Made by a program: the position numbers and the translations under genes. A stretch of 64,000 bases of DNA from Curtobacterium sp. L6-1 (GTDB lineage Bacteria; Actinomycetota; Actinomycetes; Actinomycetales; Microbacteriaceae), in the NCBI RefSeq assembly GCF_018885305.1, contig NZ_CP076544.1, forward strand, positions 3,038,001 to 3,102,000. Direction: 5' to 3'. The stretch's first letter is position 1; each line of letters starts with the position of its first letter. A model generated the notes under the pieces. That model had not been told where the DNA came from. It made no database searches and worked only from the letters and a program-made list of their open reading frames with translations. Below, piece by piece: positions 8,139-37,723 of the stretch.

Positions 8139-8140
8139 GG

Positions 8141-8235
8141 CGGGGCTCCGCCCCGACCCGGCCGGGAGGCCCGCCCTCCGTCCGCCCCGCTGCCCGCCTC
8201 CGTCTGGACCACCGTCCAGCCGCCGGCGGGCAGCG
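8141..8235 (+). terminator. Two GC-rich hairpins after the GH65 gene
   Basis: A short stem CGGGGC/GCCCCG (8141-8146 with 8150-8155) follows the stop codon directly. A larger nested structure pairs 8188-8198 with 8225-8235 (11 bp) and, inside it, CTGGAC 8204-8209 with GTCCAG 8214-8219. Probably the operon terminator; there is no U-tract, as is usual in actinobacteria. Confidence 0.5.
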
Positions 8236-8303
8236 TGGTCTCCCGTGCCCCGCGGGCCGATGACGTCTCTCCCGGGTCACGACCGACGCGAGAGGAACAC
8301 ATC

Positions 8304-9071: not shown

Positions 9072-9084
9072 CCCGCCGACCAGT

Positions 9085-9126
9085 TCCACAAGAGCCATTG
9101 CACAACATCCCTTGTGGATGTAGCGT
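9085..9126 (+). promoter_or_regulatory. Promoter and operator of the ArsR-MFS operon
   Basis: -35 TTGCAC (9098-9103), 17-bp spacer, -10 TAGCGT (9121-9126), with the GTG start only 6 bases later. An 8-bp perfect inverted repeat, TCCACAAG at 9085-9092 and CTTGTGGA at 9111-9118, surrounds the -35 element and ends just before the -10. An inner CACAA/TTGTG pairing is also present. This is the expected layout for autorepression by the ArsR-type product. Confidence 0.7.
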
Positions 9127-9132
9127 CAGGCC

Positions 9133-22881: not shown

Positions 22882-24354
22882 ATGGCCCTCCGCACCAAGT
22901 CCATCGAGGCGTCGCTCGCCGACGCCGACGAGAAGGGGCGCTCGCTCAAGCGCTCCCTGAAGACGTTCGACATCGCCGCGATGGGGATCGCGGTCGCGGT
23001 CGGCGCCGGCATCTTCTCGGTCGGGGCGAACGCCGCCGCGAACTTCGCCGGCCCGGGCGTCATCGTGTCGTTCATCCTCGCCGCCGTCACCTGCGGTCTC
23101 GCGATCATGTGCTACGCCGAGTTCGCCTCGACGATCCCGGTCGCCGGCTCGGCCTACACGTTCACGTACGCCACCATGGGCGAGCTGCTCGCGTGGATCG
23201 TCGGGTGGGACCTCATCCTCGAGACCCTGACCGCCAGCGCCGTGATCGCGAAGTACTGGGGCATCTACCTCAGCACCGCGTTCGACGTGTTCGGGGTCAC
23301 GCTGCCGGACACCATCGCGCTCGGCCCGGTCGGGTTCGCCTGGGGCCCGGTGCTCATCGTCGCGGTGTTCACCGCGCTGCTGGCGTTCGGCACCCGGCTG
23401 TCCAGCCGCGTCTCGGCCGTCATCACGATCATCAAGGTCGCGATCGTCCTGTTCGTCATCGTGGTCGGTGCCTTCTTCGTCAAGGCCGCGAACTTCACGC
23501 CCTTCATCCCCGCAGCCGAGCCGACCAAGGGCGCCGAGGGCAGCTTCCTCACCCAGTCCCTGGTGTCCTTCGCCACCGGTTCGGCGCCCGCGCAGTACGG
23601 CGTCTTCGGCCTGCTCGCCGCCGCGTCCCTGGTGTTCTTCGCGTTCATCGGCTTCGACGTCGTCGCGACCAGTGCCGAGGAGACCGAGAACCCGCAGAAG
23701 ACGCTCCCGCGCGGCATCTTCATCGGCCTCGGCATCGTCACGCTGCTCTACGTCGGCGTCAGCATCGTGATCACCGGGATGGTGTCGTACCAGCGGCTCG
23801 CGCAGGAGGACACCCCGTCCCTCGCCTCGGCGTTCGACATCGTCGGCCTGCCCTGGGCCGCCGGCATCATCGCGATCGGGTCGCTCATCGGCCTGACCAC
23901 GGTCGTCATGGTGCTGCTCCTCGGCCTGTCCCGCATCGTCTTCTCGATGAGCCGGGACGGCCTGCTGCCCCGCTGGTTCTCGGTGACGAACCCGAAGACG
24001 CAGACCCCGGTCCGTGTCCAGGTCATCGCCGGCATCGTCGTGGCGGTCCTCGCCGGGTTCACGCCGGTCGAGAAGCTCGAGGGCCTCATCAACATCGGCA
24101 CGCTGTCGGCCTTCGTGCTCGTGTCGATCGGCATCATCGTGCTCCGGAAGTCCCGCCCCGACGCACCGCGCTCCTTCCGGGTGCCGTGGTCGCCCGTCAT
24201 CCCGATCCTGTCCGCGGTGCTCTGCTTCTGGCTGATGCTCAACCTCGAGGTCGAGACCTGGCTGCGCTTCGTCGTGTGGCTCGCCATCGGCTTCGCGATC
24301 TACTTCGGCTACAGCCGCCGCCACAGCCGCGTCGGCAGGTCGATGCGCGAGTAG
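22882..24354 (+). CDS. APC-family amino acid permease, cationic amino acid transporter type
   Basis: The 490-residue protein has about 12 membrane helices. LKRSLKTFDIAAMGIAVAVGAGIFSVG at the N-terminus covers the conserved helix 1 break, and FFAFIGFDVVATSAEETENPQ is the helix 6 signature typical of CAT-type (cationic amino acid) transporters such as YfnA. It probably takes up amino acids by proton symport. It runs toward the lysE-like exporter gene with a 27-bp gap, so uptake and export genes for basic amino acids may be neighbours (inference). Confidence 0.9.
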   Translation: MALRTKSIEASLADADEKGRSLKRSLKTFDIAAMGIAVAVGAGIFSVGANAAANFAGPGVIVSFILAAVTCGLAIMCYAEFASTIPVAGSAYTFTYATMGELLAWIVGWDLILETLTASAVIAKYWGIYLSTAFDVFGVTLPDTIALGPVGFAWGPVLIVAVFTALLAFGTRLSSRVSAVITIIKVAIVLFVIVVGAFFVKAANFTPFIPAAEPTKGAEGSFLTQSLVSFATGSAPAQYGVFGLLAAASLVFFAFIGFDVVATSAEETENPQKTLPRGIFIGLGIVTLLYVGVSIVITGMVSYQRLAQEDTPSLASAFDIVGLPWAAGIIAIGSLIGLTTVVMVLLLGLSRIVFSMSRDGLLPRWFSVTNPKTQTPVRVQVIAGIVVAVLAGFTPVEKLEGLINIGTLSAFVLVSIGIIVLRKSRPDAPRSFRVPWSPVIPILSAVLCFWLMLNLEVETWLRFVVWLAIGFAIYFGYSRRHSRVGRSMRE

Positions 24355-24381
24355 CGGTCCCGCGTCGGCCGGCGCCGGCTG

Positions 24382-25248
24382 TCAGGCACCGACGAGCAGG
24401 ATCACCCCGAAGGCGAGCATCACGACGGCCACGAGGGCGTCGAACACCCGCCAGGTCACCGGCCTCGCGAACAGCGGCCGGAGCAGTCGCCCGCCGAAGC
24501 CGAGCGCCCCGAACCACAGGCAGCTCGCCGCGACCGCGCCGACCGTCCACCACCAGCGCTCGTCGACGCCCTGCTGGTTCGCGACGGAGCCGAGGAACAC
24601 CAGCGTGTCGAGGTACACGTGCGGGTTCGCCCACGTGAAGACGAGCATCGTCAGGACCGCGGCCCGCATGGTCGGTGCCGCCGTGGTGCCGGGACCGACC
24701 CGGCCGGGAGGCGCGGTGCGGCTCGTCGACGCGGGTCGCGCCTCCAGGGCGGCCGGTCCGGACGCCGGGCCCGCCGTGCCGGGGCTGACGTCGGACGCCG
24801 GGCCCGCCGTGCCGGAGCCGACGTCGGCCGCCGGTCCGGCCGCCGCATCCGCCGCCGTCGTCGCGAGCGCCGTCGTCGCGTCCATCGTCGTCGGGGCGGC
24901 GACGGGCACCCCGTCCTCCGCGGCCCGGTCGTCGAGGCGCACGGCATCGCCGGACGGACGCAGGGCACGCCGGGCCGCGAGCACCCCGTAGGTGAGCAGG
25001 AAGGCGGCGCCGACGAAGCGGACGACCAGCAGCGCGGCGGGCACCCGCTCGACGACCGCCCCCACCCCGAGGACCCCCGCGACGATGAGCGCCGCGTCCG
25101 ACAGCGCGCAGACCGCCACCGCGACCGCGACGACGGCCAGCCGGGCGCTGACGGCGAGGCGCAGCAGGTACGTGTTCTGCACCCCGATGGCGACGATCAG
25201 GGCCAGGCCGGTCCCGAGGCCGGAGAGGAGGGGCAGGAGCGCGGTCAC
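24382..25248 (-). CDS. LysE/ArgO-family amino acid exporter with an extra low-complexity loop
   Basis: The 288-residue protein has the LysE fold: GLALIVAIGVQNTYLLR in helix 1, FLLTYGVLAARRALR, then FTWANPHVYLDTLVFLG in the second half. The family is normally about 200-210 residues; here about 80 Ala/Thr/Gly/Pro-rich residues (roughly 112-195) are inserted in the loop between the two halves and contain imperfect repeats of GTAGPAS. GTG 25248 follows TACCGT (25255-25260 on this strand) by 6 bases: leaderless. It is divergent from the LysR gene, as in lysE-lysG of Corynebacterium. Likely exports arginine or lysine. Confidence 0.88.
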   Translation of the reverse strand: MTALLPLLSGLGTGLALIVAIGVQNTYLLRLAVSARLAVVAVAVAVCALSDAALIVAGVLGVGAVVERVPAALLVVRFVGAAFLLTYGVLAARRALRPSGDAVRLDDRAAEDGVPVAAPTTMDATTALATTAADAAAGPAADVGSGTAGPASDVSPGTAGPASGPAALEARPASTSRTAPPGRVGPGTTAAPTMRAAVLTMLVFTWANPHVYLDTLVFLGSVANQQGVDERWWWTVGAVAASCLWFGALGFGGRLLRPLFARPVTWRVFDALVAVVMLAFGVILLVGA

Positions 25249-25316
25249 ACCCGAACGGTACGGCCCGCGCTGTCCACAGGCCAGCTCATGTTCCTGTCGC
25301 ACCGTAAGCTGCGCTG

Positions 25317-26237
25317 ATGGTGCAGTTCCAGCGTGACCACCTCGAGACCCTGCTCGCCGCCGTCGACACGGGCACCTTCGACGCCGCCGCCCGCGAGCTG
25401 GCGATCACACCGTCGGCCGTCTCGCAGCGGGTCAAGGCGATGGAGCAGCTCGTCGGTCGGGTGCTCCTCCAGCGGACCACCCCGATCCGACCGACGCCCG
25501 ACGGCGAGGTCGTCCTCCGGCACGCGCGGCAGGTGCGGCTGCTCGACGCCGAGACCTCGCGGGCACTCGCGGTGTCGGACGCGGACGGCCCGGGCCGGAC
25601 GCCCTCGATCGCCCTGGCCGTCAACGCGGACTCCCTCGCCACGTGGTTCCTCGACGCGCTCGACCTCGTCCGCCGCGACACCGACGTGGTGTTCGACCTG
25701 CACCGCGCGGACCAGGACCGCACCGCCGAGCTGCTCCGGGCCGGCACCGTCACGGCGGCGGTGACGGCCGAGGCCGAGCCGGTGCAGGGGTGCTCGTCCG
25801 TCCCGCTCGGGGTGGACCGCTACCGGGCCGTCGCGGCGCCGTCGTTCGTCCGGCGGTACCTCGAGGGCGCGGACACCGAACGCCGCATGACGACCCGCCT
25901 CGACCGGGTGCCGCTCGTCGACTACGACCGCGACGACGACCTGCAGCAGGGCTTCCTGCGCCGGGTCCTCGGGCACGCACCCCGAGGACCGCGGCACTTC
26001 GTCCCGACCTCGGCGGACTTCGCCCGGGCGGTCGAGCTCGGCTTCGGCTGGGGGATGTTGCCCGAGGCGCAGTGCCTCGGGGCGCTCGAGCGGGGAGCCC
26101 TCGTCGAGCTGACGCCGGGGCGACGAGCGGACGTGGTGCTGTGGTGGCAGCGCTGGACCACGTCGTCACCGCTGCTCGACCGCGTGACGGACGCGGTCCG
26201 GTCGGTCGCGGGGGCGCGCCTGCACCAGCCCGGCTGA
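25317..26237 (+). CDS. LysR-type regulator, ArgP/LysG group
   Basis: The 306-residue protein begins with the LysR winged helix: LETLLAAVDTGTFDAAARELAITPSAVSQRVKAME holds the HTH, spread over two helices. The effector domain follows (SIALAVNADSLATWFL is typical of ArgP/LysG/IciA). In Corynebacterium the orthologue LysG activates the divergent lysE when basic amino acids accumulate (established). The arrangement is the same here, with 68 bp between the starts. ATG 25317 follows TAAGCT (25305-25310) by 6 bases, so it too appears leaderless. Confidence 0.9.
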   Translation: MVQFQRDHLETLLAAVDTGTFDAAARELAITPSAVSQRVKAMEQLVGRVLLQRTTPIRPTPDGEVVLRHARQVRLLDAETSRALAVSDADGPGRTPSIALAVNADSLATWFLDALDLVRRDTDVVFDLHRADQDRTAELLRAGTVTAAVTAEAEPVQGCSSVPLGVDRYRAVAAPSFVRRYLEGADTERRMTTRLDRVPLVDYDRDDDLQQGFLRRVLGHAPRGPRHFVPTSADFARAVELGFGWGMLPEAQCLGALERGALVELTPGRRADVVLWWQRWTTSSPLLDRVTDAVRSVAGARLHQPG

Positions 26238-26625
26238 CACGCCCGACGCCGTCCGCTCCGCCCGGTTGTCCGCGGAACGCGCGTCCGGCGTCGGATCGCG
26301 CGGACGACCACCGATCAGGGGCCTGTTCACACGATCGTCACGAACCGGCGGCGCACCGTGTCGTACGATCGGCACCACCGACGGCGCGGGCCGTCGTGAG
26401 CACCACCCGAACACACCGAACCCGATCCGCCTCCCGAGGGCGGATCCTCCGGTGCCTGCCGCACCCACGGCGTGCACCGTGCCACGGACGAGGAACCCTA
26501 GCCTCCGTCCGCGCCGGACCCTCCCTGGTCCGGGACCTGTCGCCATCGTCGCCGACACCCGTCATCCGTCGTGCCCCCGCGGGCAGGACGGACCGACATC
26601 TCCGACACCCGACAGGAGAACGCGC
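26238..26625 (+). promoter_or_regulatory. Long 5' region of the GT2-HlyD-GH81 operon
   Basis: No gene is supported in these 388 bp. A possible -10 TACGAT (26364-26369) lies between two copies of ACGATCG (26331-26337 and 26365-26371), the first within the palindrome ACGATCGT; the -35 region is weak. That would give a leader of about 250 bases, long enough for post-transcriptional control. The ribosome site ACAGGAGA (26612-26619) is near the end. Confidence 0.35.
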
Positions 26626-28605
26626 ATGTCCGCACCCACGGACGTCCGGCGACCCCGGACGACCTCCGCACCCCTGACCGAACCCGACGACCGCGCCGTG
26701 GTCGAGGTCCCGGCCGACGAGCAGCCCCGCCGCCGCTCCGGTCGTCGAGCCTCCACCGGCAGCCCCGCCGGAGGCCCCGCCGGCACCCCGGCCGGTGACC
26801 GCGCCGGCACGGCGACCGCACCGCAGGCCGAGGTCACCGGCCGCCGCACGGGCATGCTCCCGTCCGGTCGTGGACGAGCCGACACCCGGGCACACAGCCC
26901 GGTCATGGTGCTCATCGTCCTGCTGGCGACGCTCGGTGTCGTCACGTACGCGGTGTTCCTGCTCAACCCGGCGAACCGCGGCGACTTCCTGCCGTACGGC
27001 CTCGTCATCGTCGCCGAGAGCGTCCTCGTCGGACAGTCCCTGCTGTCGATGTGGACCATCCTGTCCGGCGGCACCGACCCGCGTGACTTCGCGTTCCACA
27101 ACACGCAGGACACGCTGTTCGACCTCGACGAGATCGACCGTCGCGACCTCACCGGGCGCAGCCACCTCTGGCCGATGCGCATGCGCGGCCAGCGGGTCAC
27201 GGTCGACGTGTTCATCACCGTCTACGGCGAGGAGCTGACCAAGATCGCGGCCACCGTCGCCGCGGCCGTCGCGATGCGCGGCGAGCACCGCACGTGGATC
27301 CTCGACGACGGTCGGAGCGACGACGTGCGCGCCCTCGCCGACCGGCTCGGGGCCCGCTACGTCCGCCGCCTGTCGTCGAACGGGGCGAAGGCGGGCAACA
27401 TCAACCACGCCCTGACCCTGGCGAAGGGCGACTACTTCGCGGTCTTCGACGCGGACTTCGTGCCGTCGCGGGACTTCCTGTTCGAGACGGTGCCGTTCTT
27501 CGCGGACGGGTCGATCGCCTTCGTGCAGACCCCGCAGACGTACGGCAACCTGCACAACCTCGTCTCCCGCGGCGCCGGCTACATGCAGACGGTGTTCTAC
27601 CGCTTCATCCAGCCCGGTCGGAACCGCTTCAACGCGGCCTTCTGCGTCGGGACGAACGTCATCTTCCGCCGTGCCGCGATCGACGACATCGGTGGCATCC
27701 ACACCGACTCGAAGTCCGAGGACGTCTGGACGAGCCTGCACCTGCACGAGCGCGGCTGGAAGTCGGTCTTCATCCCGATGACCCTCGCCGTCGGTGACGC
27801 CCCCGAGACCATCGAGGCGTACAGCAAGCAGCAGCTCCGCTGGGCGACCGGCGGGTTCGAGATCCTGCTGACCCACTTCCCGTTCAACCCGAAGCGCAAG
27901 CTGACGATGGACCAGCGCCTGCAGTACTTCGTGACCGCGAGCTTCTACCTCACCGGCATCGTGCCCGGGCTGCTGCTCCTCGTGCCGCCGCTGGAGATCT
28001 TCTTCGACCTCCGCCCGATGAACATGTCGATCGGCGTCGGCGAGTGGGTGCTCTTCTACCTCGGCTTCTACCTCATGCAGGTCGTCCTGGCGTTCTACGC
28101 CCTCGGGTCGTTCCGGTACGAGACGCTGCTGCTCGCCGCGGTGTCGTTCCCGATCTACGCCCGTGCGCTCTGGAACGTGCTGTGCGGGAAGGAGCAGGCC
28201 TGGCACGTCACCGGAGCCGGCCGGGGACGGGCACCGTCGCCGTTCAACTTCATCGTGCCCCAGGTGCTCGTCTTCGTGTTCCTGACCCTGACGAGCGTCG
28301 TCGCGATCTGGCGTGACGTGTCGAACGGGCAGCTGACCCTGGCGACGGCGTGGAACATCACGAACTCGATCATCTTCGGCGCGTTCATCGTCACCGCGCT
28401 CCGCGAGCAGTCGGCGAACCGCCGCGCCGCACGGCAGGAGCGCGACGCCGACACCGCCCCGGTGCTCGTGCTCACCGCCGGTCTCGAACCGGCTCCCGCA
28501 CTCCGGACCCAGGTGGTCCACCCCGACTCGCTGCAGCCCGCGCGTGACGTCATCGCCGCCAGTGCCGCATCCGGAACCCCGACCCCCGTGGAGGTCGCAT
28601 CATGA
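26626..28605 (+). CDS. Processive GT2 glycosyltransferase, cellulose/curdlan synthase-like
   Basis: The 659-residue membrane protein has a disordered Pro/Ala/Gly-rich start (1-90), two membrane helices (about 93-113 and 122-146), a GT-A domain and 4-5 further helices. Processive GT2 motifs are complete: ILDDGR (D227/D228), DAD (275-277), SED in place of TED (D366) and KQQLRWATG with the QxxRW core (403-406). This is the BcsA/CrdS/Alg8 pattern, so it should extend and extrude a beta-glycan. No PilZ domain is present, so c-di-GMP control would need another protein. The start is ATG 26626 with ACAGGAGA. The next gene overlaps by 4 bases. Confidence 0.9.
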   Translation: MSAPTDVRRPRTTSAPLTEPDDRAVVEVPADEQPRRRSGRRASTGSPAGGPAGTPAGDRAGTATAPQAEVTGRRTGMLPSGRGRADTRAHSPVMVLIVLLATLGVVTYAVFLLNPANRGDFLPYGLVIVAESVLVGQSLLSMWTILSGGTDPRDFAFHNTQDTLFDLDEIDRRDLTGRSHLWPMRMRGQRVTVDVFITVYGEELTKIAATVAAAVAMRGEHRTWILDDGRSDDVRALADRLGARYVRRLSSNGAKAGNINHALTLAKGDYFAVFDADFVPSRDFLFETVPFFADGSIAFVQTPQTYGNLHNLVSRGAGYMQTVFYRFIQPGRNRFNAAFCVGTNVIFRRAAIDDIGGIHTDSKSEDVWTSLHLHERGWKSVFIPMTLAVGDAPETIEAYSKQQLRWATGGFEILLTHFPFNPKRKLTMDQRLQYFVTASFYLTGIVPGLLLLVPPLEIFFDLRPMNMSIGVGEWVLFYLGFYLMQVVLAFYALGSFRYETLLLAAVSFPIYARALWNVLCGKEQAWHVTGAGRGRAPSPFNFIVPQVLVFVFLTLTSVVAIWRDVSNGQLTLATAWNITNSIIFGAFIVTALREQSANRRAARQERDADTAPVLVLTAGLEPAPALRTQVVHPDSLQPARDVIAASAASGTPTPVEVAS

Positions 28606-29342
28606 CCTGGACCAACCGACTCCGCCTGTACGGCGGCATCCTGGTCGTGCTCGTCGTCGTCGCGGCCTGCACGCTCGTCTTCAACCAGCGCCGGAGCGCC
28701 GTGACGAGTGCCTCCGCCGCGATCAGCGCGCAGGAGTACGCCGTCGGCACCGACTACGGCGGAACGGTCACCGAGGAGTACGTGGAGGAGGGCGACACCG
28801 TCCGCGAGGGCCAGGAGCTCATGCAGGTCCAGAGCCTCCAGCTCGCCCAGGACATCCGGAAGGGCGTCGTCGGGTCGGATACCACCACGAGCGCGTACGA
28901 GATCGAGCGCGACGGCCTCATCACCTTCAAGGCCGAGGTCTCCGGCACCGTCGCGAAGCTCGACGTGAAGGCCGGCGGCTACGTGCAGGCCGGCTCCGAA
29001 CTCGGCACGATCCACAAGGCGAAGAGCCTGTTCGTGACGAGCGAGTTCCTCGTCAGCCCGCGCGACTACGGCCGGATCTCCGACGGCGCGACCGTCGACC
29101 TGCTCCTGCCCAACGACCGCTCCATCCAGGGCACCGTGAAGAACGTCAGCGTCGTCACCGACGCCGACGGTCAGGCGAAGACGACCGTCGCGGTCGAGAG
29201 CCCCGAGCTCTCATCCTCGCCGTCGTCGGGCGTCACGAGCCCCGGCACCCCGGTGGACGCGACGCTGCACCTGCGGGACGACGGCCGCCTGGCCGGCGTC
29301 GCCGACGGGTTCCGCGACTTCCTCCGTCAGATCGGACTGTGA
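28602..29342 (+). CDS. HlyD/membrane-fusion-like single-pass protein
   Basis: The 246-residue protein has one N-terminal membrane helix (about 10-28) and an extracytoplasmic region with two half-lipoyl motifs: VGTDYGGTVTEEYVEEGDTV and VSGTVAKLDVKAGGYVQAGS, then a beta-barrel (LFVTSEFLVSPRDYGRI onward). That is the core of membrane-fusion proteins, without the long coiled coil. In a Gram-positive cell no outer membrane exists to reach. The closest functional parallel is the fusion-protein half of Alg44, encoded beside the GT2 Alg8 in alginate operons. Overlaps on both sides (ATGA, GTGA) bind it to the synthase and hydrolase genes. Confidence 0.82.
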   Translation: MTWTNRLRLYGGILVVLVVVAACTLVFNQRRSAVTSASAAISAQEYAVGTDYGGTVTEEYVEEGDTVREGQELMQVQSLQLAQDIRKGVVGSDTTTSAYEIERDGLITFKAEVSGTVAKLDVKAGGYVQAGSELGTIHKAKSLFVTSEFLVSPRDYGRISDGATVDLLLPNDRSIQGTVKNVSVVTDADGQAKTTVAVESPELSSSPSSGVTSPGTPVDATLHLRDDGRLAGVADGFRDFLRQIGL

Positions 29343-31411
29343 GCGTGCGGCTCCGTGCCGGCGCCGTCGCCCTCGTGGCCGCGTCCGCACTCGTGCTCAC
29401 CGCCTGCACCGGCACCGCCCCCGAGACCCGGACGGGAGGCGCGGACCGGACCACCGGGAGCGCCTCGCCCTCGGTGGACGGTGCAGCCCAGCAGCGCGGC
29501 GTCGCCGCGCTCGGTGCGGTGACGAAGACCACCGCGGGCAGCATGCGGCTCGCCGACGGACTGGTCCCGCCGACGAACCGGTGGTTCTCCGGCCTCGTCT
29601 ACGGCGCCGCCCCGCAGCCGGTCTTCCCGACGCCGATCTCGTGGCAGGTGACCGACGACGGGTTCGCCGCCGGGCTCCCGGTCGTGAGCGCGACCGAGAA
29701 GACGATCGCCGGCGGAGCGGTGCAGCAGGTCGGTCTCGACCTCGGTGCCGACCGCACACTGGTCTCCGCGTACGACCAGGTCTCGGTGACGGTCGAGCAC
29801 CGGAAGGGGTCGACCGTGCTCGGGCACACGGTCCTCGCGCAGGGTTCGCCGCTCGTGTCGTACACGGCCGAGCGTGCGCAGACCACCACCGCCACCGGGC
29901 CGGTCACCGCGACCGGCGACGGTCCCGACGGCACGACGACGGGCACCGTCGCCGCCGACGGCCGGACGTGGGGCGTCGTCACGAGCGGCGACCTCGACGG
30001 CAGCAGGATCGCCCTCCCGCGTGGCGGCACCGTCGTGCTGTTCCCCGTGCCCGACGACGCGACCTCTCAGCAGGTGCGGGCGCTGTCCGCCGCGGCGGCG
30101 TCCCCGCTGCAGCGGGTCACGCTCGCCCGGTCGTCGACCGGGTCCGCGACCGACGGCGAGCAGCGCACCGCGCTCGGCTACCGCACCGCGGCCCGTGGCG
30201 ACACGGTCGTCGTGCCGCAGCCCGGCCAGGGCGCGACCGGCCTGGACTGCACCGGTCTGCACTACGCGACCATCACCGGGGCGGCGCCCGTCTGCACCGG
30301 TGACGTGCTTCGGTTCGCGGCCCCGAGCCTCCAGGCCGACGACCGGTTGGACCTGTCCGACCTGTCGTCGACCGAGCGGGAGCGCCTGACCGCCCAGGTG
30401 CGCGCCGACGCCGGAGACGTCTCCGAGGCGTCCTTCGGCGCCGACAGCTACGGCGGCGGGAAGGACCTGTACCGCGTCGCGAACCTGTACCGGCTCGCCA
30501 CCCAGCTCGACCTGGACGACGTCGCCACGGGGCTGCGCGGGCAGCTCGTGGCGCAGATCGACCAGTGGACCGACCCGGACGGGTGCGGTGTCAGCGGCAC
30601 GCGGTGCTTCCGGTACGACGACACCGTGAAGGGCCTGGTCGGCCAGGCGCCCTCGTACGGGTCGGACGAGTTCAACGACCACCACTTCCACTACGGCTAC
30701 CTGCTGTCGGCGGCGGCGATCGTGGCCGACGGCTCGGACGAGCTGGTGGCGAAGTGGCGGCCCGTGCTCGACCTGGTCGCCGCGGACATCGCGTCGCCCG
30801 AGGCCACCGCGGTGTTCCCGGAGCTCCGCGTGTACGACCCGTACGCGCAGCACTCGTGGGCGTCGGGGTACTCGCCGTTCGCCGACGGGAACAACCAGGA
30901 GTCCTCGTCGGAGGCCGTGTCGGCCTGGAACGGACTCGCCCGATGGGGCGCCGTCTCCGGGTCGCGTGCCACCGAGCAGCTCGGCGACTGGCTGCTCGCG
31001 AACGAGGCCGTGTCCGCCCAGCGTGACGTCCTCGACCCCGACCTCCGGGCGTTCCCCGGGTTCGAGCACACGATCGTGTCGCTGAACTGGGGCGGCAAGC
31101 GGGACCACGCCACGTGGTTCAGCGCGGACCCGGCGGCACCGGCGGGCATCGAGCTCATCCCGATGCCGGCGGTCGCGACCGGCTACGTCGCCGCGGGCGG
31201 GAAGCGGCAGATCGCCCGGGTCCTGGCCGAGGCGGTGCCGGAGGGCGACTACGCGGTGCAGTTCGGCGACTACCTGCTCATGTACCGGGCGCTCGCGTCG
31301 GGTGCCGAGGCGAAGGCGGCCCTGGCGGCGGCCGAGGAGCTGCCGGCCGAGCACATCGACACCGGCAACACCCGCTCGTACCTCCTCGCGTGGATCATGT
31401 CCCGCGGGTAG
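29339..31411 (+). CDS. GH81 endo-beta-1,3-glucanase lipoprotein
   Basis: The 690-residue protein starts with a lipoprotein signal, lipobox LTAC (C23). The N-terminal part begins LVPPTNRWFSGLVYG as in GH81. The catalytic half carries DHHFHYGY (from D447) and NNQESSSEAVSAWNG with the two family glutamates at about 521 and 525; these are hallmark GH81 motifs. GH81 enzymes cut beta-1,3-glucan. Gene order (synthase, fusion protein, hydrolase, all overlapping) mirrors cellulose operons, where an endoglucanase trims the product. Expected to be lipid-anchored outside the membrane. The alternative role is digestion of fungal or plant glucan, but operon coupling argues for partnership with the synthase. 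Confidence 0.88.
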   Translation: MSVRLRAGAVALVAASALVLTACTGTAPETRTGGADRTTGSASPSVDGAAQQRGVAALGAVTKTTAGSMRLADGLVPPTNRWFSGLVYGAAPQPVFPTPISWQVTDDGFAAGLPVVSATEKTIAGGAVQQVGLDLGADRTLVSAYDQVSVTVEHRKGSTVLGHTVLAQGSPLVSYTAERAQTTTATGPVTATGDGPDGTTTGTVAADGRTWGVVTSGDLDGSRIALPRGGTVVLFPVPDDATSQQVRALSAAAASPLQRVTLARSSTGSATDGEQRTALGYRTAARGDTVVVPQPGQGATGLDCTGLHYATITGAAPVCTGDVLRFAAPSLQADDRLDLSDLSSTERERLTAQVRADAGDVSEASFGADSYGGGKDLYRVANLYRLATQLDLDDVATGLRGQLVAQIDQWTDPDGCGVSGTRCFRYDDTVKGLVGQAPSYGSDEFNDHHFHYGYLLSAAAIVADGSDELVAKWRPVLDLVAADIASPEATAVFPELRVYDPYAQHSWASGYSPFADGNNQESSSEAVSAWNGLARWGAVSGSRATEQLGDWLLANEAVSAQRDVLDPDLRAFPGFEHTIVSLNWGGKRDHATWFSADPAAPAGIELIPMPAVATGYVAAGGKRQIARVLAEAVPEGDYAVQFGDYLLMYRALASGAEAKAALAAAEELPAEHIDTGNTRSYLLAWIMSRG

Positions 31412-31506
31412 TCCGGGCCGGGAACGGCGGACCGGGGCCTGGGAGCGCGGATCGGGGGACGCGCTCCTGGGCTCCGGCACACCTCCGGCGGCCTACCGTC
31501 CACAGC

Positions 31507-32028
31507 ATGACCTTGCGCGCGAAGACCACCGCCACCCTCGTCGGCCTCGCCACCGTCGGCCTGCTGCTCGGCGGTTGCTCGAACGCCGGCGCCCAGAACG
31601 GCAACCCGGTCGGGAAGGTGCCCGGCTCCGAGGAGTCCGCCACCCGCTCCGACCCCGGTCAGCGCAACGCCGCTCCGTGCGGGGTCGCCTCGAGCGCCGC
31701 GGTCGACGTCATCGACGAGGCCGTCGGCCCGCACGACGACACCGACGTGGTGAGCGTCACGAAGAGCGACGAGGGCTGGTACCTCGGCGTCTCGGTGGCA
31801 CCGAACACGAGCGACGACCCGAACGACGACGAGGTCGGCATCTGGGGCACCGAGGAGGACCCGACCGCCGAGGACTTCGACGGCATGGTCTTCCCCGTCA
31901 ACAAGGTCGCCGAGGACGTTGTCGGCGACGAGCAGGGATCCGCGACGGCGGCGCCGTCCGCGTTCTCCGAGACCTCGGAGGCCGCGAAGCAGGTCCAGAG
32001 CTGCATCGTCGAGGCCGTCGACCACTGA
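31507..32028 (+). CDS. Small lipoprotein of unknown function
   Basis: The 173-residue protein has a lipoprotein signal with lipobox LGGC (about residue 24). The mature part is acidic (SDDPNDDEVGIWGTEEDP and similar) with two cysteines, one in APCGVAS and one near the end in QSCIVEAVDH, that could form a disulfide outside the cell. I do not recognise a family. ATG 31507 follows TACCGT (31494-31499) by 7 bases, so it has its own leaderless promoter and is separate from the glycan operon. Confidence 0.75.
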   Translation: MTLRAKTTATLVGLATVGLLLGGCSNAGAQNGNPVGKVPGSEESATRSDPGQRNAAPCGVASSAAVDVIDEAVGPHDDTDVVSVTKSDEGWYLGVSVAPNTSDDPNDDEVGIWGTEEDPTAEDFDGMVFPVNKVAEDVVGDEQGSATAAPSAFSETSEAAKQVQSCIVEAVDH

Positions 32029-32045
32029 GCCGCCCACAGCGTGGC

Positions 32046-32066
32046 GGCGCGGGCCGCACCCGCGCC
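32046..32066. terminator. Bidirectional terminator hairpin
   Basis: GGCGCGGG (32046-32053), 5-base loop, CCCGCGCC (32059-32066): an 8-bp perfect stem between the convergent lipoprotein and nei genes. Confidence 0.6.
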
Positions 32067-32074
32067 GACCGCCG

Positions 32075-32854
32075 TCAGGTCTGGCAGCGCGGGCACCAGT
32101 AGGTGTCCCGCAGCGTGAGCTCGGACTCGCCGAGGTCCCCGGACCGCACGCGGGTGCCGCAGCGCAGGCACGGCTTGCCGGCCCGGTTGTAGACCCAGAA
32201 GCGCTGCCCCGGGCGGTCGACCCCCGTGGTCACGCGGTTGCTCCGGTCGCGGTTCGCGACGATGAGCCGGGAGGCCATGGTCACCATCCGAGCGGGATCG
32301 CGCACCTCGGCGACGGGGCGCGTCGGCAGGACACCCCGCAGGAAGCAGAGCTCGTTGCGGTAGACGTTCCCGAGCCCCGCCATCACCCGCTGGTCGAGGA
32401 GGGCGAGCCCCACCGGTCGCGCCGGGTCCGCGGTGAGGTTCGCGAGTGCCAGGTCGGCGTCCCAGTCCGAGCCGAGCAGGTCCGGGCCGAGGTGCCCGAC
32501 GACGGTGGACTCCTGGTCGCGGGGCACGACCTCGAGCACCCCGAGCGTGAAGCCCACGGTCGAGACGTCCTCGGCGTCGAGCACGGCCCGGGCCTGGAAC
32601 GCCGGACGGCGCCAGCGCTCACCCGGGCGGTAGACGTCCCACCGGCCCTCCATCTTGAGGTGCGAGTGCACCGTGAGGTCGCCGATCCGGTGCAGCAGGT
32701 GCTTGCCGCGCGGCACGACCTCGTCGACGGTGCGGCCGACCAGGTCGAGCGTCGCGAACGCGGGCACCCGGAAGTCGCTGCGCGTCAGGACCTTCCCCGC
32801 CAGCGCGGCGTGCAGGCGCGCGGCGGCGCGGAAGACGGTGTCGCCCTCAGGCAC
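32075..32854 (-). CDS. nei: Endonuclease VIII-type DNA glycosylase
   Basis: The 259-residue protein belongs to the Fpg/Nei family: after Met removal, P2 and E3 of PEGDTV form the catalytic end. GKHLLHRIGDLTVHSHLKMEG follows, split over two strands, then the helix-two-turn-helix LLDQRVMAGLGNVYRNE and a C-terminal zinc finger with CLRCG and CPRC. The PEGDTV start is the Nei2 (endonuclease VIII) type rather than Fpg (PELPEVE). It removes oxidised pyrimidines. It begins 8 bases inside the end of lhr, the same order known for lhr and nei2 in mycobacteria. Confidence 0.92.
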   Translation of the reverse strand: MPEGDTVFRAAARLHAALAGKVLTRSDFRVPAFATLDLVGRTVDEVVPRGKHLLHRIGDLTVHSHLKMEGRWDVYRPGERWRRPAFQARAVLDAEDVSTVGFTLGVLEVVPRDQESTVVGHLGPDLLGSDWDADLALANLTADPARPVGLALLDQRVMAGLGNVYRNELCFLRGVLPTRPVAEVRDPARMVTMASRLIVANRDRSNRVTTGVDRPGQRFWVYNRAGKPCLRCGTRVRSGDLGESELTLRDTYWCPRCQT

Positions 32855-35800
32855 GGAGACGCAGTCCCTGCGGGGTGGCGGTGAAGCCGGCGGTGCGCAG
32901 GGCCGCGCCGAGTGCCGACTCGAGGACGAACACCCCGTTCACCCGTTCGACCGACAGCTTGCCGAGGCCGGAGCGCACGGTCGCGGCGATCGACGTCGCG
33001 GCCGCGGCCAGGTCGGCGGGGTCCTCGGTGAAGGTCAGCACGCTCTTGCCGCCGCGTTCGACGTAGACGGCGAGCTGCCCGTCCACCAGGACGACGAGCG
33101 CGCCGGCCTTCCGCCCGGGACGGTGACCGCGTCCGGACTTCGCCGTGGTGGTGGTCGACGTGGCCGGTGCGGCGGCGGCGTCCGGGGCGTCCGCACCCTC
33201 GGCGTCGCCGGCGTCGCCGGCGTCGTGCGGCCAGGGCAGCGCGGCGCCGTACGGGTTCGCGGGGTCGGTGGCCGCCAGCGTCAGCGCTTCGCACACGCGC
33301 TCCGGGTCGGCGCGTTCCTCGTCGTCGAGGTCCTTCGCGTAGGTGCGCAGCCGGTCGACCGTCGGGCCGGTGGCGAACTGCGCCGCACCCAGTCCCTCCA
33401 CGAAGTACCCGCGTCGAGCGCGACCGGACTCCTCGAACTTCGCGAGGACCCGGTACACACCGGCGAACCCACCGCGCACACCCTCGACCTGCACGGCACC
33501 GCGGGTGACGACGCCGTACCGCTCGAGCAGGAGCTCGGCGGTCGCCGCAGCACGGACGGTGGCGTCCGGTTCGGCGAGCGGCAGGAGCGACCAGCGGCCG
33601 CCGACGTTCGGCGGTCCGGACTGGGTCGGCAGCGTCGGGCGACGACGGCCGCGGTACGCACGGGTCCGCGGCGCACTCGTCGTCCGGGCCGCGCCGCCGA
33701 GCATCGCCCGGAGCGGCGCGAAGGTGTCGTTCGTGATCTGGCCGGCCCAGACGAGGTCCCAGAGGGCGGTCGTCAGCGCCTTGTCGTCGGTGCTCCCGAC
33801 GGCCTGGCCGAGCTGCCGGAAGAAGTAGGCACCGCCACCGGCCAGGGCACCGAGCACGTCGCGCTGCAGCTCGGTCGTCTCGTCGCCGGCGGCCTCGGCC
33901 AGGGTCGTGGCCGCGGTGTCCGCCAGGTGCAGCCGCACCCAGCCGTCGTTGCCCGGCAGGGTGCCGCCGCCGGACCAGAGGACCTCGCCCGTCGCGGTCA
34001 GTTCGTCGAGCATGCTCGGCGCGTAGTCGGACACGCGTGCCGGCAGGACGAGGGACTCCCACGAGCTCGCGGGCAGGGCGACCCCGGAGAGCTGGTCGAC
34101 GACCTGCAGCACGCCGTCGATCCCGCGCAGACCACCGCGGGTGCCGGGGACGCGGACGTGCTGCCACGCCGGCATGAACCGGGCCAGGGTGTCCGGGGAG
34201 ACCGGTTCGACCTCGTGTCGGAGCGCGGCGAGCGACTTCGTGCGGATGCGCCGGAGCACCTCGGAGTCGCACCACTCGGCGCCCTGCCGGTCCGGGCGGA
34301 ACTCGCCCTCCACCAGACGGCGGTCGGCCGCGAGGCGTCGGAGCGTGTCCTGCACGACGGCGACGCCGAGGCCCAGCCGTGCCGCGGCCTCCTGCGTGCT
34401 GAACGGACCGTGACTGCGGGCGTACCGGCCGACCAGGTCCCCGAGCGGATCGGCGACCGGCTCGACGAAGGCGGTGGGCACGCCGATCGGCAGCGGCACG
34501 CCGAGCGCGTCGCGCAGCCGGGAGGCGTCCTCGATGACCGCCCAGCGGGTGGCCCCCGCGTGCGAGAAGGCGAGCACCCGGCGGTCGCGCTCGAGTCCTT
34601 CGAGGGCCGTGCGCATGGTCGCGCCGGCCTCGGTCCGGTCGGTCGCCTCGGCGAGCCAGCTGCGGTCGAGCAGTTCATCGAGGTCGAGTGCGCCGACGAG
34701 TCGGAGGACGTCGACCGTGCCCTCGACGTCGCGCGCGCGGCGGTCCGGGGACAGGCGCTGCAGGTCGCGCTCGACGCCGTCGATGACCGCGGGGTCGAGC
34801 AGCTCGCGCAGTTCCGCCCGGCCGAGGAGTTCGCCGAGCAGCGTCGAGTCGAGGGACAGCGCCGCGGCACGGCGTTCGGCCAGCGGGGAGTCGCCCTCGT
34901 ACATGAAGGCGGCGACGTAGCCGAACAGCAGCGTGCGGGCGAACGGCGACGGCTGCTCGGTCTCGCTCTCGACCAGGCGGATGCGACGCCGGGCGATTTC
35001 GTCGGCGATGCCGAGCAGGGCGGGGACGTCGTACACGTCCTGCAGCACCTCGCGCACCGTCTCGAGCAGGATCGGGAAGGTCGGGTACTTCTGCGCGACC
35101 TCGAGCAGCTGGGAGGCCCGCTGCCGCTGCTGCCAGAGCGGGGAACGGCGGCCCGGGTCACGGCGGGGGAGCAGGAGCGCGCGGGCCGCGCACTCCCGGA
35201 ACCGCGCCGCGAACAGGGCGGAGCCACCGACCTCGTCGGTCACGATCGCCTCGAGGTCGTCGCGTTCGAAGACGAACAGGTCGGCGCCGGGAGGCTCGGC
35301 GTCGGTCTCGGGGATCCGCACCACGATCCCGTCGTCGGCCGCCATCGCACCGCCGTCGATGCCGTGCCGCTCGCGCAGGCGGGCGGCGACGGCGAGGGCC
35401 CAGGGTGCGTGCACGGTCATGCCGTACGGGGAGTGCAGGATGAGGCGCCAGTCGCCGAGCTCGTCGCGGAAGCGCTCGACGACGAGCGTCGTGTCGTTCG
35501 GGACGTGCCCGGTGGCCGCGCGCTGGTCGCGGAGGAATGTGACGAGGTTCGTGACCGCGCGCTCGTCGAGCCCGCCGGCCGCCACCCGGGCGCGGGCGTC
35601 CTCGTCGGACGCGGACTCGACCTCCCGGATGAAGGCGCCGGTCGCCCGGCCGAGCTCGGCGGGTCGTCCCAGCCCGTCGCCCTTCCAGAACGGCACCCGA
35701 CCGGGTTGCCCGAACGCCGGACTGACCAGGACCCGGTCGTGCGTGATCTCCTCGATCCGCCAGCTGGTGGCACCGAGGGCGAAGACGTCGCCGACGCGGG

Positions 35801-37580
35801 ACTCGTAGACCATCTCCTCGTCGAGCTCACCGACGCGCGAGGCCCGTTCGCCGACCATGAAGACGCCGAACATGCCGCGGTCCGGGATGGTCCCGCCGCT
35901 CGTGACGGCCAGGCGCTGCGCACCGGGTCGCCCGGTCAGGGTGCCGTGCACGCGGTCCCAGACCAGGCGCGGCCGGAGCTCGGCGAACTCGTCGCTCGGG
36001 TAGCGCCCGGTGACGAGGTCGAGCGTCGCCTCGAACGCGGAGCGCGGCAACCCGCTGAACGGGGCACTGCGGCGGACCAGTTCGAACCAGTGCTCGACGT
36101 CCACGGTGTCGATGGCCCCGGCGGCGACGGTGTGCTGGGCGAGGACGTCGAGCGGGTTGGCGGGCACCGAGATCGACTCGATCTGGCCGGAGACCATGCG
36201 CTCGACCGTCACCGCGCTGTTGACCAGGTCCGCACGGTGCTTGGGGAACAGCACGCCGCGGGAGATCTCGCCGACCTGGTGTCCGGCGCGACCGACGCGC
36301 TGCAGGCCGCTCGCGACGGACGGCGGTGCCTCGACCTGGATGACAAGGTCGACCTCGCCCATGTCGATGCCGAGCTCGAGCGAGCTGGTGGCCACGACGC
36401 AGCGGAGCCGGCCGGACTTCAGGTCGTCCTCGATGATCGCGCGCTGGTCCTTCGATACCGAGCCGTGGTGTGCGCGGGCGAGCGCCGGGATGCTCCGCTC
36501 CGACCCGCCGCCCTCGGTCTGCCCCGAGGCGCCGACGAGCTGCGCCGGCGGACGGGTCGGCTGGGCCACCGGCGCGTGCGCGGAGGCGCGCCCCGGTGAC
36601 TGGGTGACCGCTGCCGCGCCGACGGCGACCGGCTCGGCGACCTCCGCCGTCGCGAGCATCCGCTCCTCGTGGATCTCGTTGAGGCGGGCGGTCAGGCGTT
36701 CGGCCAGCCGTCGGGAGTTCGCGAAGACGATCGTCGACCGGTGCTGCTCGACGAGGTCCACCACGGACTCCTCGACGTGCGGCCAGATCGACCCGTTCGT
36801 GGGTGCCGAGGTCGCGTCCGCGCCGACCGGCGGGGCTCCGAGCTCGGTCATGTCGTCGACCGGCACGACGACCCGCAGGTCGAACGTCTTCTGCGCGGGC
36901 GGGGCGATGATCTGGACCGGTGCCCGACCGCCGAGGAACCGCGCGACCTCCTCCGCCGGACGGACCGTCGCGGACAGACCGATGCGCTGCACGGGCCGCT
37001 CGAGCAGGTCGTCGAGGCGTTCCAGCGACACGGCCAGGTGGGCGCCGCGCTTGGACGACGCGACGGCGTGCACCTCGTCCACGATGACGGTGTCGACGTT
37101 GACCAGCGTCTCGCGGGCCTTCGACGTCAGCATGAGGTAGAGCGACTCGGGCGTCGTGATGAGGATGTCCGGCGGCAGCCGCAGGAGCCGCTGCCGGTCG
37201 GACGAGGGGGTGTCACCGCTCCGGACCCCCACGGTGACGTCCGGCGGCTCGAGTCCCAGGCGCTTGGCCGTCTGCGTGATGCCGACGAGCGGGCTGCGCA
37301 GGTTGCGCTCGACGTCGACACCCAGGGCCTTGAGCGGGGAGACGTAGAGGACCCGGGTGCGCTGCTTCGCCGGCGGGGTGTCCGTCGCCGAGATGAGGCG
37401 GTCGATCGACCAGAGGAACGACGCGAGGGTCTTGCCGGAACCGGTCGGGGCGATGACGAGTGCGTGCTGCCCGGTCGAGATCGCGTCCCACGCGCCGGCC
37501 TGTGCGGCGGTCGGTTCGCGGAAGGCACCCCGGAACCACTCGGCGGTGGCGGGGGAGAAGCGCTCGAAGACGTCCGTCAT
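32847..37580 (-). CDS. lhr: Large ATP-dependent helicase Lhr
   Basis: The 1577-residue superfamily 2 helicase, the usual size for bacterial full-length Lhr. Motif I is APTGSGKT (44-51), motif II is DEVH (168-171), followed by a winged helix and the Lhr-specific C-terminal extension. A Gly/Ala/Pro-rich insertion is present near residue 340. Lhr is a 3'-5' DNA helicase linked to DNA repair and is induced by damage in mycobacteria (established). Coupling to nei suggests a shared role in excising or unwinding damaged DNA. Start at ATG 37580; a second ATG four codons upstream is possible. Confidence 0.94.
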   Translation of the reverse strand: MTDVFERFSPATAEWFRGAFREPTAAQAGAWDAISTGQHALVIAPTGSGKTLASFLWSIDRLISATDTPPAKQRTRVLYVSPLKALGVDVERNLRSPLVGITQTAKRLGLEPPDVTVGVRSGDTPSSDRQRLLRLPPDILITTPESLYLMLTSKARETLVNVDTVIVDEVHAVASSKRGAHLAVSLERLDDLLERPVQRIGLSATVRPAEEVARFLGGRAPVQIIAPPAQKTFDLRVVVPVDDMTELGAPPVGADATSAPTNGSIWPHVEESVVDLVEQHRSTIVFANSRRLAERLTARLNEIHEERMLATAEVAEPVAVGAAAVTQSPGRASAHAPVAQPTRPPAQLVGASGQTEGGGSERSIPALARAHHGSVSKDQRAIIEDDLKSGRLRCVVATSSLELGIDMGEVDLVIQVEAPPSVASGLQRVGRAGHQVGEISRGVLFPKHRADLVNSAVTVERMVSGQIESISVPANPLDVLAQHTVAAGAIDTVDVEHWFELVRRSAPFSGLPRSAFEATLDLVTGRYPSDEFAELRPRLVWDRVHGTLTGRPGAQRLAVTSGGTIPDRGMFGVFMVGERASRVGELDEEMVYESRVGDVFALGATSWRIEEITHDRVLVSPAFGQPGRVPFWKGDGLGRPAELGRATGAFIREVESASDEDARARVAAGGLDERAVTNLVTFLRDQRAATGHVPNDTTLVVERFRDELGDWRLILHSPYGMTVHAPWALAVAARLRERHGIDGGAMAADDGIVVRIPETDAEPPGADLFVFERDDLEAIVTDEVGGSALFAARFRECAARALLLPRRDPGRRSPLWQQRQRASQLLEVAQKYPTFPILLETVREVLQDVYDVPALLGIADEIARRRIRLVESETEQPSPFARTLLFGYVAAFMYEGDSPLAERRAAALSLDSTLLGELLGRAELRELLDPAVIDGVERDLQRLSPDRRARDVEGTVDVLRLVGALDLDELLDRSWLAEATDRTEAGATMRTALEGLERDRRVLAFSHAGATRWAVIEDASRLRDALGVPLPIGVPTAFVEPVADPLGDLVGRYARSHGPFSTQEAAARLGLGVAVVQDTLRRLAADRRLVEGEFRPDRQGAEWCDSEVLRRIRTKSLAALRHEVEPVSPDTLARFMPAWQHVRVPGTRGGLRGIDGVLQVVDQLSGVALPASSWESLVLPARVSDYAPSMLDELTATGEVLWSGGGTLPGNDGWVRLHLADTAATTLAEAAGDETTELQRDVLGALAGGGAYFFRQLGQAVGSTDDKALTTALWDLVWAGQITNDTFAPLRAMLGGAARTTSAPRTRAYRGRRRPTLPTQSGPPNVGGRWSLLPLAEPDATVRAAATAELLLERYGVVTRGAVQVEGVRGGFAGVYRVLAKFEESGRARRGYFVEGLGAAQFATGPTVDRLRTYAKDLDDEERADPERVCEALTLAATDPANPYGAALPWPHDAGDAGDAEGADAPDAAAAPATSTTTTAKSGRGHRPGRKAGALVVLVDGQLAVYVERGGKSVLTFTEDPADLAAAATSIAATVRSGLGKLSVERVNGVFVLESALGAALRTAGFTATPQGLRLRA

Positions 37581-37634
37581 GGTCCCGCCCATCCTGCTCT
37601 CCACCACCGACAGCGTCCTGATCTCCGGCACTGC

Positions 37635-37668
37635 TTGACAACGAGACCAGTACCGATCTATCGTTACT
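37635..37668 (+). promoter_or_regulatory. padR promoter with overlapping 20-bp palindrome
   Basis: -35 TTGACA (37635-37640), 18-bp spacer, -10 TATCGT (37659-37664). AGTACCGATCTATCGTTACT (37649-37668) is an inverted repeat with 8 of 10 pairs matching, covering the -10. This is a strong candidate for autorepression by the PadR protein. Confidence 0.72.
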
Positions 37669-37723
37669 GCATCGCGAATGGCACACGAGCAGTCGCGAAC
37701 CGTCTTCCACGAAAGGAGTCGTC

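What the first reader, a model, noticed from the sequence alone, without database searches (positions are those of the whole stretch)
26626..31411. GT2 synthase, HlyD-like protein and GH81 glucanase in one coupled operon: a possible beta-1,3-glucan exopolysaccharide machine
The three genes overlap by 4 bases each (ATGA and GTGA), so they are made together. The first is a processive GT2 of the BcsA/CrdS/Alg8 pattern (DD, DAD, SED, QxxRW). The second is a single-pass membrane-fusion-type protein, parallel to the fusion-protein half of Alg44. The third is a lipid-anchored GH81 endo-beta-1,3-glucanase with DHHFHYGY and paired catalytic glutamates. Cellulose operons pair a synthase with a product-specific hydrolase; by the same logic the product here may be a beta-1,3-glucan, made in a Gram-positive cell with no outer membrane. 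No PilZ domain or c-di-GMP site is visible. I know of no described system with this composition.
Basis: partly seen in the sequence, partly recalled or inferred. Interest (0 to 1): 0.82.

Follow-up and report, generated by a model that had tools for sequence, protein, structure and literature searches.

The report
Actinobacterial β-1,3-glucan synthase–hydrolase trio (candidate)
A three-gene unit found in many Actinobacteria pairs a cellulose-synthase-like enzyme and a membrane adaptor with a membrane-anchored enzyme of a family that cuts β-1,3-glucan, so it probably makes a curdlan-like slime and is a good candidate for how Gram-positive Cellulomonas makes curdlan.

Summary
GT2 (26626-28605), adaptor (28602-29342) and GH81 (29339-31411) overlap by 4 bases each. 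Of 39 near GT2 relatives fetched from 13 named actinobacterial genera, 38 have the adaptor and GH81 directly downstream; the other runs off its contig. No neighbouring gene found spreads over more than four genus-level groups. The GT2s form their own clade, outside BcsA, CrdS and BgsA. The GH81s separate from 13 other GH81s and keep the D/E/E residues; 34 of 38 have a lipobox by pattern. The second gene is a short HlyD/RND-type adaptor without a long hairpin. GT2 plus HlyD-type partner is already found in mixed-linkage (bgsBA) and crd-type operons; the GH81, the single-membrane host and the order are what is new. I found no description in the papers searched. A β-1,3-glucan product is the best reading (about 0.65). 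It rests mainly on GH81 specificity, with support from active-site letters shared with CrdS and from the unit's presence in Cellulomonas, a genus with curdlan producers. It is not proven: alignment-wide column counts do not favour CrdS over BcsA, a trio+CrdS clade is rejected (p 0.0125), and no biochemistry was done.

The parts
26613..26618 (+). AGGAGA, likely ribosome-binding site of the GT2 gene
   Evidence: sequence
26626..28605 (+). Processive GT2 synthase, 659 aa: about 88 low-confidence N-terminal residues, two TM-type helices, BcsA-type GT-A domain (D/DAD/SED/QQLRW), further TM-type helices; no PilZ domain
28602..29342 (+). HlyD/RND-type membrane-fusion (adaptor) protein, 246 aa, one N-terminal TM-type helix, no long alpha-hairpin; starts in the ATGA overlap
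29339..31411 (+). GH81 endo-beta-1,3-glucanase-type lipoprotein, 690 aa, lipobox LTAC at residues 20-23, catalytic-type residues D447, E521, E525; GTG start in the GTGA overlap

Best explanation
The trio is a self-contained exopolysaccharide machine of single-membrane Actinobacteria. (1) GT2 polymerises UDP-glucose and threads the chain out through its own TM channel (inferred from BcsA-like fold and motifs). (2) The adaptor, anchored by one helix and lacking the long hairpin that docks onto outer-membrane ducts, sits on the outer face of GT2 and guides the chain through the wall zone, comparable to BcsB in cellulose or BgsB in mixed-linkage glucan synthesis (inferred). (3) The lipid-anchored GH81 stands beside the exit and cuts beta-1,3 bonds of the emerging or deposited polymer, trimming, releasing or recycling it (family and catalytic-type residues shown by sequence; action on the cognate product inferred). 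The product is most likely a beta-1,3-glucan of the curdlan type. Shown: gene identity, fixed order, co-inheritance, catalytic-type residues. Inferred: sugar, linkage, complex formation, role of GH81.
For: Trio in 38 of 39 loci; 34 of 38 with the 4-base GT2/adaptor overlap; no neighbour gene found in more than four genus-level groups; distances of the three proteins correlate at r 0.85-0.93, permutation maxima 0.24-0.31, over 34 loci. Conversely, all 13 loci L001-L013 (GH81 hits at 41% identity or more, remnant L014 apart) also hold GT2 and adaptor. Trio GH81s (22 rows) and 13 other GH81s lie on two sides of a 100/100 branch; 0 of 8 annotated non-trio GH81 loci list a GT2 or HlyD neighbour within 5 kb (the plasmid gene tables are incomplete). 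Of 8 matched PDB sequences, two are named endo-beta-1,3-glucanase and the nearest 'Glycoside hydrolase family 81'. Active-site letters FCVGT and SED are shared with the CrdS rows but not the BcsA or BgsA rows; CVGT in 120 of 120 trio-like and 120 of 120 CrdS-like proteins of the two capped lists, which hold near copies. GT2 plus HlyD-type partner also in bgs and crd-type loci. Cellulomonas fimi, sp. JH27-2 and other named species carry this GT2; the genus includes curdlan producers (passages of PMC3544764, PMC3035266, PMC10819609).
Against: No biochemistry. Columns shared with one family only: CrdS 3, BcsA 6, BgsA 0, so the GT2 sequence alone does not decide. Trio+CrdS as one clade is rejected (p 0.0125), trio+BcsA is not (p 0.348). 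NCBIfam and PDB searches rank cellulose synthases first. GH81 could act on foreign glucan. I could not show that curdlan-rich C. flavigena itself has the trio. A C. fimi GH81 was reported in culture supernatant without a typical SEC or TAT leader (passage of PMC4780727); whether that is the trio enzyme is unknown. C. gelida is reported to make no curdlan (passage of PMC3035266); its trio status was not checked.
Confidence: 0.65

Rival explanations
1. The GT2 makes cellulose or another beta-1,4-linked polymer, and GH81 acts on a different glucan or keeps the exit site clear of foreign beta-1,3-glucan.
For: Nearest solved relatives are BcsA; sister relation to BcsA not rejected; 6 columns shared with BcsA only against 3 with CrdS only; databases name many relatives 'cellulose synthase'.
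Against: NCBIfam CelA scores 250.3 against a cut-off of 699.1; no PilZ; no further gene conserved with the trio over more than four genus-level groups; the cellulose operons seen carry GH5 (passages of PMC7710045) or GH8 (title of PMC5407803, listing), and I recall none with GH81; active-site letters differ from the BcsA rows.
Confidence: 0.13
2. The GT2 makes a mixed beta-1,3/1,4-glucan, as BgsA and RiGT2 do, and GH81 cuts its consecutive beta-1,3 stretches.
For: Same GT2 + HlyD partner logic as bgsBA; the adaptor profile matches a three-row BgsB-like profile over 73 columns, probability 93%.
Against: Trio GT2 tails after residue 603 vary from 10 to 194 aa and show almost no similarity between genera, so no shared c-di-GMP tail as in BgsA is visible; CVGT/SED instead of the CCGS/TED of the two rhizobial BgsA rows. 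The rhizobial polymer alternates 1,3 and 1,4 bonds (passage of PMC9495663), giving no consecutive beta-1,3 stretch.
Confidence: 0.14
3. A non-glucan polymer, or a scavenging operon in which GH81 feeds on fungal or plant beta-1,3-glucan and the GT2 has an unrelated role.
For: The window's genome also encodes a separate multidomain GH81, so beta-1,3-glucan use is probably part of its biology; 4 of 8 annotated plasmid GH81s lie near ABC transporters, GH3 or GH16.
Against: Trio GH81s stand apart in the tree, are compact and mostly lipoproteins, and came with GT2 and adaptor in 13 of 13 loci L001-L013; no sugar-uptake gene is conserved with the trio over more than four genus-level groups.
Confidence: 0.08

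Closest known systems
crdASC, curdlan (beta-1,3-glucan) synthase operon of Agrobacterium
   Same: GT2 with FCVGT, SED and DADF; in the crd-type locus used here (L063) a HlyD-type gene lies just upstream (HlyD_3 24.3 bits, cut-off 22.2), which I take for crdA by position
   Different: Gram-negative; the third gene has no Pfam hit, so is no GH81; CrdS is not the exclusive sister of the trio GT2; 24-25% identity over the alignment for the Agrobacterium rows, 35% over 303 local columns
bgsBA, mixed-linkage beta-glucan operon of Sinorhizobium/Rhizobium
   Same: GT2 + HlyD-type membrane protein
   Different: bgsB precedes bgsA; described as a two-gene operon, without a hydrolase; c-di-GMP-binding C-terminus (passages of PMC9495663); CCGS/TED letters
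Bcs cellulose synthase (BcsA-BcsB-BcsZ)
   Same: Processive BcsA-type fold; product-directed hydrolase logic (recalled)
   Different: No PilZ, different hydrolase family, HlyD-type instead of BcsB partner, CelA equivalog cut-off not reached
Clostridial ccsZABHI and Romboutsia RiGT2
   Same: Gram-positive GT2 beta-glucan synthases; Ccs has a cognate hydrolase
   Different: PilZ-bearing GT2s; Ccs hydrolase is GH5 and CcsB is CBM11-like; RiGT2 makes mixed-linkage glucan (abstract and passages)
Sulfitobacter GH8-HlyD-GT2 cluster (L065)
   Same: Hydrolase + HlyD + GT2 in one cluster
   Different: GH8 instead of GH81, different order, GT2 near BgsA/CrdS, Gram-negative

Membership tests
GH81 | Catalytic C-terminal domain PF17652 above cut-off | tested here: met
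   138.6 bits against 25.6
GH81 | Catalytic D and two E | tested here: met
   D in all 39 trio rows (38 loci + window), both E in 38 of 39, L029 being cut by its contig end; their catalytic role is recalled from BhGH81 work
GH81 | N-terminal domain PF03639 | tested here: inconclusive
   not found in the window protein or genome (the control genomes rang nowhere either); 24.2 bits against 25.6 in L038
GH81 | Endo-beta-1,3-glucanase activity | not testable with these tools
   needs an enzyme assay
BcsA cellulose synthase | NCBIfam CelA (TIGR03030) cut-off | tested here: not met
   250.3 against 699.1 bits
BcsA cellulose synthase | PilZ domain | tested here: not met
   absent in the window GT2 and in 10 relatives; present in the E. 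coli control
CrdS / crdASC | GT2 forms one clade with CrdS | tested here: not met
   p-AU 0.0125
CrdS / crdASC | Acceptor and base letters FCVGT / SED | tested here: met
CrdS / crdASC | CrdC-like partner | not tested
   no such gene stands in the trio; no direct search was made
BgsBA | HlyD-type partner | tested here: met
BgsBA | C-terminal c-di-GMP-binding tail of the synthase | tested here: not met
   tails of 10-194 aa without similarity between distant genera, no Pfam domain in the 10 longest-tailed and other relatives scanned; similarity to the BgsA tail itself was not searched
HlyD/RND membrane-fusion proteins | Barrel-sandwich domain and adaptor fold | tested here: met
   HlyD_3 56.9 and HlyD_D23 48.4 bits, both over cut-off; Foldseek hits ZneB, BesA, MexA, AcrA
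HlyD/RND membrane-fusion proteins | Long alpha-hairpin for duct docking (in most, not all, members; recalled) | tested here: not met
   only helix 79-86 at the expected place of the model

The most novel reading that the evidence does not exclude
This is the Gram-positive curdlan-type machine: a three-gene beta-1,3-glucan synthase of single-membrane cells with its own exit-side adaptor and a dedicated lipid-anchored endo-beta-1,3-glucanase that edits and later remobilises the polymer. It would account both for curdlan synthesis in Cellulomonas and for how it is reused, which a 2013 genome paper left unclear.
Probability: 0.5. Interest if true: 0.75.

Novelty: new variant of a known kind. Interest (0 to 1): 0.62.

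Why it matters
Curdlan-type beta-1,3-glucan has been described from Gram-positive Cellulomonas (passages of PMC10819609, PMC3035266 and PMC3544764), but in the passages I saw its genes are only guessed at among GT2s of low identity to the Agrobacterium enzyme. A conserved three-gene unit gives a concrete, testable candidate and suggests how a synthase can export a glucan without an outer membrane. It would also correct the name of many proteins now called 'cellulose synthase', and offer a small system for an industrially useful polymer together with its matching hydrolase.

Tried and rejected
Rejected: (a) chance neighbours: 38 of 39 loci keep the trio. (b) A standard cellulose operon: CelA cut-off not met, no PilZ, HlyD-type partner. 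(c) NodC or IcaA kin: trio, BcsA, CrdS and BgsA stand together against these two very long rows (87/97). (d) Proof of a beta-1,3 product from GT2 letters alone: the FCVGT/SED match to CrdS looked decisive until all columns were counted and the clade test was run. (e) A fourth conserved gene: a first ORF clustering missed the adaptor itself in 24 of 40 regions, so it was repeated without an overlap filter; the widest neighbour family then reached 5 loci in four genus-level groups (19 of 38 loci have 3 kb or more on both sides). Neighbours looked up were EamA, adenylosuccinate synthetase, ABC permease, glycine transporter, VIT1, ABC ATPase, sulfite/nitrite reductase and one without hit. (f) RNA elements: none at gathering threshold in 24300-33000. 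(g) Sigma-70-type promoter scan of 26200-31600: none found. (h) Actinoplanes sporangium-matrix genes: a different pathway (passages of PMC12691653).

Led nowhere: locus-tag searches for the Cellulomonas GT2s and their neighbours; retrieving C. flavigena itself; distribution over the phylum with the genome search.

Rows dropped before counts: L039 (contig ends) is outside the overlap, lipobox and GH81 counts; L039, L050 and L051 left out of the GT2 protein set (open frame short or broken); the GT2 tree used 16 of the 37 trio rows of that set (window plus 15 loci), two Cellulomonas proteins and 18 reference rows; L029 and L044 (GH81 cut by contig end), L050 and L051 left out of the distance correlation (34 loci used); the GH81 tree used 22 trio and 13 other rows. 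Alignment A1 used matched stretches that end before the stop codon in many loci, so tails were checked anew.
Full report
WHAT IS THERE. The window lies at G000:C1:3038001-3102000 of a 3.40 Mb single-contig genome; its nearest named relatives at this locus are Curtobacterium. Three genes read on the + strand: GT2 26626-28605, adaptor 28602-29342, GH81 29339-31411, each overlapping the next by four bases. Pfam gives the three identities; NCBIfam adds GT2 and adaptor relatives, all below their cut-offs, and nothing for GH81. The GT2 has no PilZ domain. The GH81 protein begins with a lipoprotein signal (LTAC at 20-23).

CONSERVATION. A scan of the genome collection (84,980 species) with the GT2 returned 39 loci at 52-90% identity, from 13 named genera, 9 named families and 4 named orders of Actinomycetota: Curtobacterium, Frigoribacterium, Demequina, Cellulomonas, Miniimonas, Propionicimonas, Microlunatus, Actinomyces, Propionibacterium, Acidipropionibacterium, Nocardioides, Pseudonocardia and Pseudarthrobacter. 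The scan uses short peptides of the window's GT2, so it finds near relatives only; distant kin without the partners could exist. In 38 of 39 the adaptor and the GH81 follow directly on the same strand; L039 ends before them. The GT2/adaptor overlap is exactly four bases in 34 of 38, and the adaptor/GH81 overlap in 22 of 38 with automatic start choice. Among ORFs up to 6 kb upstream and 4.5 kb downstream, the widest neighbour family covers 5 loci in four genus-level groups; half of the loci (19 of 38) have 3 kb or more on both sides. The pairwise distances of the three proteins correlate (GT2-adaptor 0.93, GT2-GH81 0.85, adaptor-GH81 0.89; permutation maxima 0.31, 0.24, 0.31; 34 loci). Seen from the GH81 side, all 13 loci L001-L013 also hold GT2 and adaptor.

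GT2. In a 36-row tree the trio GT2s form one clade (100/100) on a long stem, outside the BcsA, CrdS, BgsA, NodC and IcaA rows. Holding trio and CrdS together is rejected (p-AU 0.0125); trio and BcsA together is not (0.348); trio with CrdS+BgsA is in the best tree with weak support 64/46. The CrdS reference is L063 from an Agrobacterium plasmid; I identified it through relatives named beta 1,3 glucan synthase catalytic subunit (P0131, P0158) and its three-gene setting with a HlyD-type gene upstream. Around the acceptor site and base the trio reads FCVGT and SED, as the CrdS rows do, against FFCGS/TED in BcsA and FCCGS or FCCGT/TED in BgsA-type rows. CVGT was found in 120 of 120 listed trio-like and 120 of 120 listed CrdS-like proteins; SED in 118 and 101 of 120 by a simple pattern; both lists are capped and hold near copies. 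Over all columns the signal is not one-sided: CrdS-only 3 (Y306, V341, S364), BcsA-only 6, BgsA-only 0, CrdS+BgsA 4, BcsA+BgsA 3, CrdS+BcsA 1, shared by all 36. V341 and S364 sit in the FCVGT and SED motifs, so they may bear on linkage, but this alone cannot settle it. Tails after residue 603 vary from 10 to 194 aa, with no similarity between distant genera, and 10 relatives read to their stop show no PilZ or other extra domain over cut-off. The AlphaFold model (mean pLDDT 72) matches BcsA best (TM-scores about 0.5-0.6), then plant CesA, CslF6 and hyaluronan synthase.

ADAPTOR. One N-terminal helix (3-30), then beta domains; model pLDDT 82; Foldseek hits ZneB, BesA, AcrA, MexA, MacA. Where a long hairpin would be there is one short helix (79-86). 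This fits a cell without an outer-membrane duct. It matches a BgsB-like profile of three rows (probability 93%, 73 columns).

GH81. The catalytic-type D and two E are kept in every trio row that reaches them (roles recalled from published GH81 work). Of 38 loci, 34 show a lipobox by pattern; L057 shows a GSGC that the pattern missed, L038 and L052 look membrane-anchored, and the L045 start is unsure. In a 35-row tree the 22 trio GH81s and 13 others, large Curtobacterium GH81s among them, lie on two sides of a branch (100/100). Nine GH81s on plasmids served as controls: none of the 8 annotated ones lists a GT2 or HlyD neighbour within 5 kb; six lie near ABC transporters, GH3, GH16 or LacI/TrmB regulators (L077 has no annotation, and the plasmid gene tables are incomplete).

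NATURAL LOSS. In the same-genus genome G007 the flanks are kept (window 24901-26228 aligns at 84.6%, 30976-37859 at 87.0%), but the stretch 26229-30975 is replaced by about 3.5 kb with an ABC ATPase, leaving only the last part of GH81. In one search, 10 of 36 genomes of the genus (own included, some incomplete) have trio-type GH81, one of them split over two contigs (G022); G007 keeps the remnant. The unit is optional.

LINK TO A KNOWN PRODUCT. Passages of PMC3544764 say that curdlan is made abundantly by C. flavigena and in small amount by C. fimi and others, that each of three sequenced cellulomonads has two GT2s with 35-39% identity to curdlan synthase and that all three have GH81, and that reuse of curdlan by C. 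flavigena is unclear. Trio-type GT2s occur in C. fimi (P0243, longest contig 4,266,344 bases, which by my reading is the C. fimi genome size in that paper's table), C. uda, C. biazotea and other named species; P0243 is 33% identical to CrdS over 384 columns. The complete trio was seen in Cellulomonas sp. JH27-2 (L038), whose genome gave one strong and one weak GT2 match. I did not see the trio in C. flavigena itself. Against a simple picture: C. gelida is reported to make no curdlan (PMC3035266), native C. [quoted passage not shown] fimi supernatant (PMC4780727).

LITERATURE. Ten searches were counted. In the listings and the passages read I found no description of a GT2-HlyD-GH81 system; most subscription journals are not in this library.

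HOW IT PROBABLY WORKS, AND HOW SURE. Co-inherited unit: about 0.97. Secreted-polymer synthase: about 0.93. Beta-glucan: about 0.85. Mainly beta-1,3: about 0.65. GH81 acting on the cognate product: about 0.7. Whether GH81 trims during synthesis or recycles later is open.

Noticed in passing
L081 (G007:C1:3428000-3440000), replaced block at about 6937-10404: A natural replacement allele: GT2, adaptor and most of GH81 are swapped for a block with an ABC ATPase while both flanks stay syntenic.
   Followed up: partly
L082:1752-7424 (G000:C1:1335751-1341423): The same genome has a second, large GH81 (1890 aa) with three F5/8 type C stretches, probably for degrading external beta-1,3-glucan.
   Followed up: partly
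L050 and L051 (Actinomyces polynesiensis; Acidipropionibacterium MAG): The GT2 open frame looks interrupted in these drafts while adaptor and GH81 matches are present; sequencing error or decay not resolved.
   Followed up: no
P0311: A Cellulomonas-type GT2 is listed under a Brevundimonas MAG; probably a binning error.
   Followed up: no
relatives: Databases name many trio GT2s 'cellulose synthase (UDP-forming)'; the window GT2 and the two relatives tested (L038, L053) stay far below the CelA cut-off.
   Followed up: partly
about 31507-32028 (+): A small putative lipoprotein follows the trio (no Pfam hit); it is not among the genes shared widely between genera.
   Followed up: no
24382-26237: LysE-type exporter gene and divergent LysR regulator just upstream; the region is syntenic in several Curtobacterium loci and in G007.
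   Followed up: no
L065 (Sulfitobacter indolifex plasmid): GH8-HlyD-GT2 cluster, a Gram-negative counterpart that suggests other hydrolase-matched versions exist.
   Followed up: partly
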